Shown piece after piece: positions 9,312-23,669 of a stretch of 64,000 nt of DNA. Numbering within the stretch: position 1 is the stretch's first letter; every line of letters begins with the position of its first letter. The notes beneath the pieces were generated by a model, which searched no databases, was not told the DNA's origin, and saw nothing but the letters and a program-made list of their open reading frames with translations. Source of the DNA: Ensifer adhaerens (GTDB taxonomy: Bacteria; Pseudomonadota; Alphaproteobacteria; Rhizobiales; Rhizobiaceae); NCBI RefSeq assembly GCF_013283195.1, contig NZ_JABEKT010000001.1:310001-374000 (forward strand). Direction: 5' to 3'. The translations under genes were made by a program, and so were the position numbers.

Positions 9312-9329
9312 ATTTGGAACGATCCAAAT
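9312..9329. promoter_or_regulatory. LacI-type operator, site A
   Basis: ATTTGGAACGATCCAAAT is a nearly perfect 18-bp palindrome with the central CG typical of LacI-family operators. It lies 27 bp before the GMC start. Almost the same sequence precedes the second LacI gene (23428-23445) and the DUF993 gene (23652-23669), so the LacI protein encoded at 22347-23390 probably controls this operon in trans. Confidence 0.75.
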
Positions 9330-9391
9330 TTCCGACGTGACAAACCCGAACTTTGCTCGCCCGTGCGAGCTGATGAATGACTGCACTTTTC

Positions 9392-10171
9392 CTAGAGTCT
9401 TCCGATCGACAGGCCGCCATCCGCCTGGATGACCGAGCCGGTGGCAAAACCGAATTTTCCGCCGGCAAGGCTGGCGGCGATATTGCCGATGTCCTCGGGT
9501 TCACCCCAGCGCTTCATCGGCACGAGACCACCGTCGATCAGGGCGTCGTACTTCGCCGAAACGCCGGCGGTCATGTCGGACCGGATGATACCCGGCCGGA
9601 TCTCGAAGACGGCGATGCCGGTGTCGGCCAGTCGCAGGGCAAGTCCCTGGCTGAAGGCGGCAAGACCGGCCTTGCTCATGCAATAGTCGAGCCGCTCGGG
9701 CGAACTCATGGCCGCCGAAACCGAGGTGATGTTGATGATCGAGCGTGTCGCCGCGCCGGGCTCGTCGGCCAGCATCGAGCGCAGCACCGCTTGCGTGAAG
9801 AACACCGTGCCGCGCAGATTGGTGGCAACGATCGTGTCGAAATTCTCCGGCTGCAGATCGAGGAAGTCACCGCGCACGACGGAGGCGATGCCGGCGTTGT
9901 TGACGAGGCAGCGGATCGGGCCCAAGTCCTTGCGGATACGCTCGACGGTCCCGGCATGCGCGCCGACATCGGCGAGATTGGCTTCGAGATAGATGGCGCG
10001 GCCTCCCCCAGCCGACAGCTCGGCAAGCGTCGCTTCCGTCGTCTGGTCGGCGGCGCCAAGGCCGGTCAGCGCGATATCGAAGCCGTCACGCGCCAGCGCA
10101 CGGGCAACGCCAAGACCTATGCCGCGCCGGCCACCGGTCACGATCGCAACGGGACGCGCCGATGTCGTCAT
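9392..10171 (-). CDS. SDR-family oxidoreductase (3-oxoacyl-ACP reductase-like)
   Basis: A 259-residue classical short-chain dehydrogenase. It shows the NAD(P) motif TGGRRGIG (12-19), NNAG (91-94), a catalytic Ser at 150/152 and the YCMSK pair Tyr163/Lys167. The C-terminal part (EPEDIGNIAASLAGGKFGFATGSVIQADGG) is typical of sugar and alcohol dehydrogenases of this class. The ATG at 10171 overlaps the stop of the upstream GMC gene (ATGA). As the last gene of the ABC importer operon it presumably oxidises or reduces the imported compound or its GMC product. Substrate unknown. Confidence 0.88.
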   Translation of the reverse strand: MTTSARPVAIVTGGRRGIGLGVARALARDGFDIALTGLGAADQTTEATLAELSAGGGRAIYLEANLADVGAHAGTVERIRKDLGPIRCLVNNAGIASVVRGDFLDLQPENFDTIVATNLRGTVFFTQAVLRSMLADEPGAATRSIINITSVSAAMSSPERLDYCMSKAGLAAFSQGLALRLADTGIAVFEIRPGIIRSDMTAGVSAKYDALIDGGLVPMKRWGEPEDIGNIAASLAGGKFGFATGSVIQADGGLSIGRL

Positions 10172-11664
10172 GCTGTGAGCTCCTTGGCAACGATATGGTC
10201 GGCGACGCGCAACGCCTGTGCCGCTACCGTCAGCGCCGGGTTGACGGCGGCCGAGGTCGGCAGAAAGCCGGCGTCGACGACGAAAAGGTTTTGATGGTCG
10301 AAAGCGCGGCAATAGACGTCGAGCGGCGCCTTTGCCGGATCGGTGCCCATTCGGACCGTGCCGCACTGATGCGACGGCGTGCGCTTGTCGAAGGCCTGGG
10401 ACAGCACGATCGGATAGCCCGCGGCCTTGAAATGCCCACGCATCTTGGCTTCGAGCCCGGAGAGCGCCTCCATGTTGGAGCGCCGCCACTGCATGATGAT
10501 GCCCCGGCCGTCGACCATGATCCGGCTTTCCGGGTTCGGCAGATCCTCCGTCATCATGTACCAGTCGACAGCGTGGCCGGCCATGAAGTCAAGCGCGAAA
10601 CGCGGCGCCCACATCGGCGCATTGGCCTTGAGGATGTCGCCGTTGATCTTGCCGAGCAGTTGGACATTGCCGAGCGGCAGGCCGTCCCTGCCACCGGTCA
10701 GGTAATAATCGTTCAGCATCAAAGTCTTCTGGTAGATGCTGTCGTTTCGCTTGAACGGATTGATCGCCAGCATGGCGCTGCAATTGTGGTTCATGAAGTT
10801 GCGGCCGACCTGGTCGGAGGTATTGGCAAGCCCCTTGCCGTCGCCAGAACGCAGCAGGAGCGCAGCCGAGTTGATCGCGCCCGCTGACAGGATCATCAGC
10901 TTGGGAGACAGCCGCTTCTTCTCGCCCCGATGGGTGTAATGGATCGCCTCGATCCGGCCGCTCGGACCTGCCTCCAGCGTGTCGACATGCGCCGATGTGA
11001 TCAGCTCGATATTGGGGTCGTTCAGCGCGGCGGCCAGCGACGCGGTCTCGGCGTCCTTCTTGCCCTTGCCGGTGTTGGGAAACCCGTCCCAGGGCGTGCG
11101 CCCGCCGGCAAGCCAGGTGTCGATGTCGACCCCGAGCGGCAACGTCGCCGGATGGAGCCCCTGCGCCTTCAACTCGGCGCGGGCGCGGGCAATGGCCGGC
11201 TCGTCCGGCACCGGGCCGTGAGGATAGGGCGAGGCATGGAACGGCTCAGTCGGGTCGTCGCCCAATTCGCCGCGAACTTCGAACAATCGCTCGGCCTTGC
11301 CGTACCACGGCTCCAGCTCGTCATAGGCAAAGGGCCAGGCCGGTGAGATGCCGCCGAGATGCTGCATCTCGGTGAAATCCTCGGCGCGGTAGCGCAGCAG
11401 CACCGCGCCGAAGAGCTTGGAGTTGCCTCCGACGAAATAGAAATTCCCCGGATTGAACTCAGTGCCGTCAGCCTCGCGCCACATCTCCTTCGGCCTGAAA
11501 TGGCCCTTGACGAAGATCGAGCTGTAGCTGCGCGCTTCCGGCGTGTCGGGCAGACGTTCGCCGCGCTCGAGGATGACGATGCGCGCGCCGGAGCCGGCAA
11601 GTCCCGCCGCCACGGTGGAACCGCCAATGCCCGACCCGATGATGACGATATCCGGCTGCTGCAT
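10168..11664 (-). CDS. GMC-family oxidoreductase (sugar dehydrogenase-like)
   Basis: A 498-residue FAD enzyme of the GMC superfamily, distinct from the GMC protein at 7630-9285. The FAD motif GSGIGGS is at residues 10-16, the GGNSKLFGAVLLRYRAEDF segment follows near residue 80, and the C-terminal region has HQCGTVRMG and NPALTVAAQALRVADHI. This branch resembles sugar dehydrogenases acting on C-2 or C-3 hydroxyls, including glucoside 3-dehydrogenases, as judged by general sequence character. It is cotranscribed with an ABC sugar importer and an SDR gene, which supports oxidation of an imported carbohydrate. No twin-arginine signal is visible, so the protein looks cytoplasmic. Confidence 0.85.
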   Translation of the reverse strand: MQQPDIVIIGSGIGGSTVAAGLAGSGARIVILERGERLPDTPEARSYSSIFVKGHFRPKEMWREADGTEFNPGNFYFVGGNSKLFGAVLLRYRAEDFTEMQHLGGISPAWPFAYDELEPWYGKAERLFEVRGELGDDPTEPFHASPYPHGPVPDEPAIARARAELKAQGLHPATLPLGVDIDTWLAGGRTPWDGFPNTGKGKKDAETASLAAALNDPNIELITSAHVDTLEAGPSGRIEAIHYTHRGEKKRLSPKLMILSAGAINSAALLLRSGDGKGLANTSDQVGRNFMNHNCSAMLAINPFKRNDSIYQKTLMLNDYYLTGGRDGLPLGNVQLLGKINGDILKANAPMWAPRFALDFMAGHAVDWYMMTEDLPNPESRIMVDGRGIIMQWRRSNMEALSGLEAKMRGHFKAAGYPIVLSQAFDKRTPSHQCGTVRMGTDPAKAPLDVYCRAFDHQNLFVVDAGFLPTSAAVNPALTVAAQALRVADHIVAKELTA

Positions 11665-11670
11665 CGTTCG

Positions 11671-22350: not shown

Positions 22351-23390
22351 GACAATGCCTCCCTCGTTTTGCGCTCGATCGCAGCACCGCAACTCTGGCG
22401 AACGACGAGACGCACCGAACCGATGATCGATTCTGCCTCTGCCCTTCCCGCATTGATCTGCTTCAGCAGCAATTCCGCCGCCCGCTGCCCCATGCCCTGC
22501 GGATCGACCGACACGGTCGTCAGCGCCGGCACCGCGGTCTTCGCCTCGATCACGTCGTCGAAACCGATCACGGCAAAGTCGGCGCCCGGCTCCAGCCGCC
22601 GCGCCCGCAGTCCGTCGCAGACGCCGAAGGCGACCGCGTCGTTGAAACAAAGTGCGGCCGTCGGCCTGTCGGAAAGCATCATCGCCTGTTCGATCGCCGT
22701 CACGCCGCCGGCGCGCGATGGCGCCGAACCGATGACCAGCCCGTCTGCCGCATCGAGCCCGGCCTCAAGCAAGGCTTCGCGGTATCCGCGCATGCGCGCC
22801 TCGAACACTGCCGTATCCGGGAACCCGCCGAGGAAGGCGATGCGTCGATGCCCGCGGTCGATCAAGTGGCGCACGGCCGCCATGGCGCCGGCATGATTGT
22901 CGGACGTGAGTGACGAAACGCCGGCATCGGCGATATCGCGAACGACGAGCACGACGGGAATGCCGCTCTCGACCAGCGGCGCCAGATCGGCCGCCTCGGT
23001 GCCACGCGCCGGCGAAATGATCAGCCCGGAAACCCCATGCTCGCGCATCGAGGCCACCACCTCGCGCTGGCGCTCGATCTTTTCGCTGGTGTTGGCGAGA
23101 AACTGGACGAAACCGGCCGACTGCACGACGGTATCAACGCCCACCGCCAGCTCGGCAAAGAAGCTGTTGGTCAGATCGTTGACGACGATGCCGATGATCT
23201 TCGACTTGGATTGGCGCAAATTGGCGGCGCTGCGATTGTAGACATAGCCAAGCTCACGAATGGTCGCGTTGACCTTGGCGCGCGTGACTTCATTGACCAG
23301 CGAGCTGCCCTGCAGGACGAGCGACACGGTCGACTTCGACACGCCGGCTGCGCGGGCAATATCGACCACCGTTACCCGTTCCTTGACCAC
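22347..23390 (-). CDS. LacI-family regulator heading the Gfo/Idh-CoA-transferase operon
   Basis: A 347-residue LacI/GalR regulator. The helix-turn-helix is at about residues 6-30 ([20 protein letters not shown]), the hinge near 50-60 and the ligand-binding core after that. It is the first gene of a five-gene operon and is divergent from the DUF993 gene. A 14-bp perfect palindrome (TTGGAACGTTCCAA) lies just upstream of its start and related sites precede DUF993 and the distant GMC operon, so autoregulation and control of three promoters are expected. Confidence 0.9.
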
Positions 23391-23427
23391 AGCATCCTCC
23401 CAAACGTGCTCTATTTTTCACATTCAT

Positions 23428-23445
23428 AATTGGAACGTTCCAAAT
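23428..23445. promoter_or_regulatory. LacI-type operator, site B
   Basis: AATTGGAACGTTCCAAAT contains a perfect 14-bp palindrome (23430-23443) with central CG, 38 bp before the LacI start. It matches sites at 9312-9329 and 23652-23669. The remaining 317-bp divergent gap (23391-23707) shows no gene, only AT-rich promoter-like DNA. Confidence 0.8.
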
Positions 23446-23651
23446 TCGTCAAGAGGAATTTGCTTTTGGCGCGATGTTATCGGTCAAGACTGACCAAGGA
23501 AGCAGGGACATCCGCGACATTATCCGTGATCTTCGAATGCTGGTACTTAAGATAACATTGACTATTTACAACGGCTTATCGTGACGTTAGCGCCACTCTT
23601 ACTGATCGATGACCACGCTTCGCGAGACGATGGCGAGAAATGCTGCTTGAA

Positions 23652-23669
23652 ATTTGGAACGATCTAAAT
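23652..23669. promoter_or_regulatory. LacI-type operator, site C
   Basis: ATTTGGAACGATCTAAAT differs from site A by one base and lies 38 bp before the DUF993 start, where bound repressor would block the promoter. Sites B and C are about 224 bp apart, which would allow looping across the divergent promoters. Confidence 0.75.

What the first reader, a model, noticed from the sequence alone, without database searches (positions are those of the whole stretch)
9312..23669. Three promoters 14 kb apart share one LacI operator: a predicted undescribed catabolic regulon
The sequence shows ATTTGGAACGATCCAAAT (9312), AATTGGAACGTTCCAAAT (23428) and ATTTGGAACGATCTAAAT (23652), each 27-38 bp before a start. 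They precede the GMC/Dabb/glycerate-kinase operon, the LacI/Gfo-Idh/CoA-transferase/hydratase/aldehyde-dehydrogenase operon, and the DUF993 gene. By family, this is an alcohol oxidase, aldehyde dehydrogenase, polyol/sugar dehydrogenase, aldolase-like TIM barrel, CoA activation, hydration and glycerate kinase under one repressor. I infer one oxidation pathway that splits a sugar- or polyol-like compound into an acid (to CoA thioester) and glycerate. No described pathway I know has this set.
Basis: partly seen in the sequence, partly recalled or inferred. Interest (0 to 1): 0.78.

Follow-up and report, generated by a model that had tools for sequence, protein, structure and literature searches.

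The report
Anhydro-sugar catabolic regulon in Ensifer
A soil bacterium related to nitrogen-fixing rhizobia appears to use one repressor to switch on a set of genes for taking up and burning unusual glucose relatives (1,5-anhydro sugars), and most steps of that aerobic route have not been worked out.

Summary
The three operators are real and specific. The 14-bp core occurs exactly nowhere else in the 7.07-Mb genome, and 16 of 16 same-genus genomes hold exactly three copies in the same layout. The lacI/DUF993 pair of sites recurs in 36 of 36 and 60 of 61 divergent gene pairs in relatives. The GMC site is patchy: 19 of 26 Ensifer/Sinorhizobium genomes, but only the 3 genus members among the 30 best GMC matches of the family. 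In seven distant genomes nearly the whole gene set forms one same-strand run headed by the same operator; glycerate kinase adjoins in two of them.

The transporter in between is glucose-binding by homology. DUF993 has a dihydrodipicolinate-synthase fold with the Schiff-base lysine.

Best reading: a regulon for aerobic catabolism of 1,5-anhydrofructose/1,5-anhydroglucitol-type sugars. Substrate class and reductase are known; the rest is not. The regulator's orthologue was probably already listed with a motif (SMc04401, 2015).

The parts
9312..9329 (.). Operator A, before GMC
   Evidence: kept in 16 of 16 genus genomes and 19 of 26 Ensifer/Sinorhizobium genomes
23428..23445 (.). Operator B, perfect 14-bp palindrome before lacI
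23652..23669 (.). Operator C, before DUF993
22347..23390 (-). LacI-family repressor, probable orthologue of S. meliloti SMc04401
   Evidence: orthology to the tag is inferred
21349..22350 (-). 1,5-anhydro-D-fructose reductase (AFR); its ATG overlaps the lacI stop
19725..21344 (-). YdiF-type CoA-transferase (start 21344 or 21338)
18953..19732 (-). Crotonase/enoyl-CoA hydratase, both likely catalytic Glu (E114, E134) kept
17445..18959 (-). Aldehyde dehydrogenase, specificity not assigned
   Evidence: no NCBIfam cut-off reached
23708..24880 (+). DUF993: DHDPS-fold putative class I lyase, K229 in strand 6
7630..9285 (-). GMC oxidoreductase, choline-dehydrogenase/alcohol-oxidase-like
7304..7621 (-). 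Dabb-domain protein
   Evidence: fused to crotonase in L071
6027..7307 (-). Glycerate 2-kinase family (DUF4147/MOFRL)
   Evidence: below the NCBIfam equivalog cut-offs
9392..10171 (-). SDR
10168..11664 (-). GMC2: glucose/fructose-dehydrogenase-like flavoprotein
11671..15976 (-). Sugar ABC transporter: ATPase, two permeases, binding protein (14732-15976) 81% identical to a glucose-bound structure
16281..17333 (+). Second LacI-family regulator (LacI2; exact start uncertain)
16061..16074 (.). Palindrome of the LacI2 / binding-protein intergenic region
   Evidence: this form in 15 of 28 LacI2 loci
16197..16210 (.). Second palindrome of that region
   Evidence: this form in 15 of 28 LacI2 loci

Best explanation
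The three sites are operators of the LacI protein at 22347-23390. It represses itself with the AFR-CoA-transferase-crotonase-ALDH operon, DUF993, and (in Ensifer and most Sinorhizobium tested) the GMC-Dabb-glycerate kinase operon. Together with the transporter/GMC2/SDR operon between them, the genes serve uptake and aerobic oxidative catabolism of a glucopyranose-like sugar of the 1,5-anhydro type (1,5-anhydro-D-fructose, 1,5-anhydro-D-glucitol or 1,5-anhydro-D-mannitol). Proposed steps: (1) the ABC transporter imports the sugar (inferred); (2) GMC2/SDR and AFR interconvert the 2-keto sugar and its alcohols (AFR's reduction of 1,5-anhydrofructose to 1,5-anhydromannitol is published for a ~94% identical enzyme; the rest inferred); (3) GMC and ALDH oxidise a further alcohol to an acid (inferred); (4) the CoA-transferase activates the acid and the crotonase adds or removes water (inferred); (5) DUF993, a DHDPS-like class I lyase, cuts carbon-carbon or opens the ring through a Schiff base on K229 (inferred); (6) a three-carbon piece becomes glycerate and the kinase feeds 2-phosphoglycerate to glycolysis (inferred). 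An early sugar or keto-sugar would lift the repressor (inferred). Shown here: sites, their conservation, the shared same-strand run in relatives, and family identities. Not shown: binding, the substrate in this strain, the order of steps.
For: Sites exact and unique in the genome; 16 of 16 in the genus; both lacI/DUF993 sites in 36 of 36 and 60 of 61 divergent pairs, against 3 of 1800 and 0 of 3050 shuffled intergenics with a site; same-strand run behind the operator in seven distant genomes and a shorter one in G174; a strict 16-mer found in 9 of 199 family genomes at 12 places, all in this kind of locus, control 0. AFR identity: 676 bits to 2glx, 19 differences in 330 residues by my count. 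Binding protein 81% identical to a glucose-bound homologue. GMC2 nearest glucose and fructose dehydrogenases. DUF993 fold and lysine. Published: Rhizobiaceae metabolise 1,5-anhydrofructose through AFR (PMC12441222 passage).
Against: No binding or growth data. The published proposal continues from 1,5-anhydromannitol to mannose by a P450-like enzyme, which would not need a CoA-transferase, crotonase or glycerate kinase. Glycerate kinase adjoins the run in only two of the seven distant genomes. G174 has the operator and most genes but no AFR before the CoA-transferase and no DUF993. ALDH, crotonase, CoA-transferase and kinase stay below every NCBIfam equivalog cut-off for a specific function. 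The transporter operon has its own LacI2-type palindromes in Ensifer, so it may answer to a different signal. In 20 of 75 DUF993 loci (all with DUF993 under 66% identity) none of the ten partner genes scored was found, so DUF993 also has other contexts.
Confidence: 0.66

Rival explanations
1. Same regulon, different substrate: it degrades another glucopyranose derivative (a 2-keto-aldose, a glycoside or a dextrin-derived sugar), and AFR acts in the cell on another 2-keto sugar.
For: The binding protein's best homologues bind plain glucose or galactose. The S. meliloti gene smc04396, which I take as its orthologue, is reported dextrin-induced (PMC4960864 passage). Some loci lack AFR but keep GMC, CoA-transferase, crotonase and DUF993 (L066, L070, L071, L074, L097). 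I recall that AFR also reduces 2-keto-aldoses.
Against: AFR is the gene directly behind lacI in this window and the first gene behind the operator in seven distant genomes; S. morelense was isolated on 1,5-anhydrofructose as sole carbon source.
Confidence: 0.22
2. The published route is complete: AFR makes 1,5-anhydromannitol, a P450-like hydroxylase turns it into mannose, and the other genes here serve a second, unrelated substrate that happens to share the repressor.
For: Review passage citing Kuhn 2006. The genome does have five P450-family matches.
Against: None of the five lies in the window (nearest about 78 kb beyond its end) and no exact operator lies outside the locus. AFR is kept together with CoA-transferase and crotonase behind the operator in seven distant genomes.
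Confidence: 0.08
3. Site A is a chance or decayed element and the GMC-Dabb-kinase operon is not in the LacI regulon.
For: Site A is absent before 27 of the 30 best GMC matches of the family and in 7 of 26 Ensifer/Sinorhizobium genomes, including the S. meliloti and S. medicae genomes tested.
Against: It is a near-perfect palindrome kept in 16 of 16 genus genomes and 19 of 26 in the wider group at 22-28 nt from the start (core to ATG). In two other genomes (L268, L269) an operator stands about 205 nt before a separated GMC-Dabb pair, and in the seven distant genomes GMC and Dabb lie in the run headed by the operator.
Confidence: 0.04

Closest known systems
1,5-anhydro-D-fructose catabolism of Sinorhizobium morelense S-30.7.5 (Kuhn, Yu, Giffhorn 2006; known here from PMC12441222 passages and recall)
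   Same: Same reductase (about 94% identical) and the same group of bacteria.
   Different: The published route ends in mannose through an unidentified P450-like enzyme. Here the reductase lies in a regulon with a transporter, flavin dehydrogenases, CoA-transferase, crotonase, DUF993 and a glycerate kinase, and without a P450.
SMc04401 transcription factor of S. meliloti, motif collection of Galardini et al. 2015 (PMC4560400, passages)
   Same: Probably the orthologue of this LacI, judged from S. meliloti gene order and neighbouring tags; mean predicted regulon 4.04 genes.
   Different: The motif itself and its targets were not visible to me. No substrate is given in the passages seen. S. meliloti 4H41 lacks site A.
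Anaerobic 1,5-anhydroglucitol pathways with glycyl-radical enzymes (YbiW, PflD) of gut bacteria (PMC12441222 passage)
   Same: Same class of substrate.
   Different: Phosphotransferase uptake and a radical enzyme that needs anaerobiosis. No gene of that kind was identified among the window genes scanned.
DUF993 paralogue SMc04132 (PDB 4dnh)
   Different: Solved but without assigned function; the window protein belongs to the group next to lacI and the operator.

Membership tests
1,5-anhydro-D-fructose reductase (Gfo/Idh/MocA) | Close sequence match to a biochemically characterised member | tested here: met
   2glx 676 bits, 4koa 608 bits; 19 differences in 330 residues to 2glx
1,5-anhydro-D-fructose reductase (Gfo/Idh/MocA) | Residues changed in the NADH-accepting mutant (A13, S33) are present in wild-type form | tested here: met
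   Window A12 and S32 stand at these places in an ungapped alignment, numbers shifted by one; mutant A13G/S33D listed in PMC5817062. The shift by one is my reading.
1,5-anhydro-D-fructose reductase (Gfo/Idh/MocA) | NADPH-dependent reduction of 1,5-anhydrofructose | not testable with these tools
   Needs an enzyme assay
LacI-family local repressor | LacI HTH plus sugar-binding domain | tested here: met
   PF00356 and PF13377 above cut-off
LacI-family local repressor | CG-centred palindromic operator before its own gene and neighbours | tested here: met
LacI-family local repressor | Binds these operators and is released by a sugar | not testable with these tools
   Needs footprinting and an effector screen
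DHDPS/NAL class I aldolase superfamily (DUF993) | DHDPS-type beta/alpha barrel fold | tested here: met
DHDPS/NAL class I aldolase superfamily (DUF993) | Schiff-base lysine in strand 6 | tested here: met
   K229 invariant in 32 aligned sequences, aligned to K161 by hhalign (probability 66%, E 5.5e-5), in strand 225-230
DHDPS/NAL class I aldolase superfamily (DUF993) | Aldolase or lyase activity | not testable with these tools
   Needs an enzyme assay
Published S. morelense AF-to-mannose route | AFR present | tested here: met
Published S. morelense AF-to-mannose route | P450-like C1 hydroxylase gene in the locus or with an exact operator | tested here: not met
   Five PF00067 matches in the genome, none in the window; no exact operator outside the locus. 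The enzyme's gene is not known, so only the P450 form of the claim is tested.
Glycerate 2-kinase (DUF4147/MOFRL) | Both domains, close to a solved glycerate kinase | tested here: met
   PF13660 and PF05161 above cut-off; 2b8n E 6.9e-85
Glycerate 2-kinase (DUF4147/MOFRL) | Curated equivalog cut-off | tested here: not met
   234 bits against 550 and 161 against 670; those models are built on other lineages (Thermoproteota- and Thermoplasma-type names)

The most novel reading that the evidence does not exclude
The locus encodes a complete, unpublished aerobic pathway for 1,5-anhydroglucitol/1,5-anhydrofructose. It does not pass through mannose but oxidises the ring sugar, activates it as a CoA thioester, opens it with a crotonase working with the Dabb protein, and cleaves it with DUF993 as a new class I lyase, ending in glycerate. 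This would give DUF993 its first function and supply aerobic 1,5-anhydroglucitol-degrading enzymes of the kind that a 2025 review says remain to be identified.
Probability: 0.35. Interest if true: 0.76.

Novelty: new variant of a known kind. Interest (0 to 1): 0.6.

Why it matters
The fate of 1,5-anhydro sugars under air is an open biochemical question. In Rhizobiaceae only the reductase step is assigned to a gene in the sources seen, and a 2025 review says that an enzyme metabolising 1,5-anhydroglucitol aerobically would have to be identified before a probiotic could lower it in two forms of neutropenia (PMC12441222, passages). A conserved operator that marks about a dozen genes as one unit, largely one run in distant relatives, gives a short, testable gene list for the missing steps. 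It also gives a first functional context for DUF993 and for a GMC-linked Dabb protein. The locus is in addition a small case of regulatory rewiring, with an extra operator before GMC in one clade.

Tried and rejected
Chance origin of the sites: rejected by window shuffles, the genome scan and relatives.

A fourth operator of this LacI at 16059: rejected. It belongs to a palindrome family that recurs between LacI2 and the binding-protein gene (each of two forms in 15 of 28 LacI2 loci).

'Site A arose because LacI2 split the operon': not supported. E. aridi (L118/L236) has site A without LacI2, and three genomes (L123/L232, L128/L228, L134/L230) have LacI2 without site A. What covaries better is Dabb beside GMC: 18 of 19 genomes with the site and 1 of 7 without it, at a 60-bit cut-off.

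P450 in the regulon: not found. Papers: no hit for DUF993; none for six further S. meliloti tags; none holding five of six family names. Two searches on anhydro-sugar gene clusters gave nothing relevant in the ten rows shown of each (1,702 and 353 papers held the terms). Kuhn 2006 is not held; what I say of it comes from the review passage and from recall. The motif table of PMC4560400 was not readable here.

Crotonase-Dabb fusion: 1 of 79 loci tested (L071); L096 has the two side by side out of frame. A sequencing error in L071 is not excluded. A search of 297 genomes of the order with the fused protein gave four matches, all covering only the crotonase part.
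Full report
WHAT IS THERE. The window lies in a 7.07-Mb genome at G000:C1:310001-374000. Nearest named relatives by the LacI protein are Ensifer and Sinorhizobium (E. oleiphilus 98%, E. adhaerens SD006 97%). The three operators are at 9312, 23428 and 23652 exactly as stated, 26, 37 and 38 nt from the start codons; DUF993 starts at the ATG at 23708. 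With up to three mismatches the window holds four places (8 strand-matches), against 0.10 strand-matches expected by shuffling. In the whole genome the 14-bp core is found exactly at these three places only. One mismatch adds two more, both inside reading frames of other genes.

CONSERVATION. All 16 genomes of the genus searched (16 of 16) hold exactly three places, two about 0.2 kb apart and one 14.1-14.2 kb away; the backward-read control is zero in 15 and one match per strand in one. Across the family, DUF993 occurs in 67 of 199 genomes. I fetched stretches of up to 20 kb around 72 of the 79 DUF993 places listed there (left out: the window's own and six fragments) and three more stretches in the genus, 75 loci in all. 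Of these 75, 36 have a lacI of at least 48% identity divergent from DUF993, and 36 of 36 have two or more sites with at most two mismatches between them. Of the other 39, 26 have no LacI homologue by this query and 13 only a distant one. In 76 named loci found with the LacI protein, 61 have the divergent pair, of which 60 have two or more sites and one has one; 11 of the rest are distant LacI only and four have no DUF993 in the stretch. Shuffled intergenic regions gave a site in 3 of 1800 and 0 of 3050 (all). The two sets overlap in genomes and should not be added.

SITE A. The operator before GMC is present in 19 of 26 Ensifer/Sinorhizobium genomes tested and absent in seven, among them S. 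meliloti 4H41 and S. medicae USDA1037. Among the 30 best GMC matches in the family (L187-L216) the three genus members have it and the other 27 do not. In many of these GMC follows closely behind the end of SDR (upstream sequences). So site A is mainly a clade feature that gives GMC its own control.

ONE REGULON. The strongest support comes from more distant family members. In seven genomes (G099, G053, G131, G130, G046, G177, G205) I fetched the stretch upstream of the loci already held. It shows the operator, then an AFR-like gene at 50-55% identity, CoA-transferase and crotonase, and continues on the same strand through ALDH (not detected in G205), binding protein, two permeases, ATPase, GMC2, SDR, GMC, Dabb and DUF993 with a LacI of 37-45%. 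Two sites stand before AFR in six (L260-L263, L265, L266) and one in L264, where lacI lies upstream instead of at the far end. Glycerate kinase adjoins in two of the seven (L100, L104) and in an eighth locus whose head is cut off by the contig end (L106). In L104 Dabb stands last and is weak (34%). A further genome without DUF993 (G174) has two sites before CoA-transferase-crotonase-ALDH-transporter-GMC2-GMC-LacI (41%); AFR is not at its head. In two others (L268, L269) a separated GMC-Dabb pair has a site about 205 nt upstream. A strict 16-mer in 199 family genomes gives 12 places in 9 genomes, all in this type of locus, with zero in the control. One relative (L071) carries crotonase and Dabb in one 368-residue frame. 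Against this stands that 20 of the 75 DUF993 loci, all with DUF993 below 66% identity, showed none of ten partner genes at the cut-offs used, so the family also has other contexts.

THE MIDDLE. The LacI2-binding protein intergenic region holds palindromes of another family; two exact forms recur in 15 of 28 LacI2 loci each. In Ensifer the transporter may therefore be under LacI2 rather than the finding's LacI. S. meliloti 4H41 lacks LacI2 there and has the binding-protein gene 158 bp behind ALDH.

PRIOR KNOWLEDGE. A 2025 review (PMC12441222, passages) states that Rhizobiaceae metabolise 1,5-anhydrofructose by a reductase to 1,5-anhydromannitol and then by a still unidentified P450-like C1 hydroxylase to mannose, citing Kuhn 2006. 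That paper is not held; I recall that it names the S. meliloti gene Smc04400. The review also says that an enzyme metabolising 1,5-anhydroglucitol under aerobic conditions has yet to be identified. PMC4560400 (passages) lists SMc04401 among 41 transcription factors with usable motifs and gives a mean regulon of 4.04 genes in S. meliloti. I infer that SMc04401 is the orthologue from S. meliloti gene order, the tags SMc04390-04392 in PMC12542648 (passages; annotated L-sorbose dehydrogenase, SDR and dehydrogenase) and smc04396 as a sugar-transport gene reported dextrin-induced (PMC4960864, passage). PMC4052901 (passages) does not name it in the text shown. The genome has five P450-family matches, none in the window.

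MECHANISM AND VERDICT. I commit to a LacI-controlled aerobic catabolic regulon for 1,5-anhydro sugars (confidence 0.66). Transport, oxidoreduction around C2, oxidation to an acid, CoA activation, crotonase chemistry, a DHDPS-like lyase and glycerate kinase are inferred steps; only the AFR step rests on published biochemistry of a near-identical enzyme. It is less undescribed than claimed, because the substrate class and the reductase are known and the regulator has probably been listed before.

Noticed in passing
window 27250-28731 (+): A 493-residue frame joins a LysR-type DNA-binding domain (residues 28-87) to an anthranilate-phosphoribosyltransferase-like part (Glycos_trans_3N, PRK09071-like), an unusual pairing that may be a real fusion.
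   Followed up: no
window 16061-16210 and 16281-17333: A second LacI gene with its own palindromes beside the transporter operon: two LacI regulons interleave in one locus. LacI2 is missing there in S. meliloti, Phyllobacterium and others.
   Followed up: partly
L071 4048-5154: Crotonase and Dabb domains in one open frame, which ties Dabb to crotonase chemistry.
   Followed up: partly
L078-L081, L084, L085, L091, L092, L095 and others: DUF993 paralogues at about 60% identity lie near another Gfo/Idh gene and/or another sugar ABC transporter without this operator, so the family probably serves several sugars.
   Followed up: no
window 793-5931: Beside the kinase lie an ALDH, a class I/II aminotransferase, a cupin-HTH regulator and a class III aminotransferase. 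The same four genes lie beyond DUF993 in S. americanum (L121).
   Followed up: no
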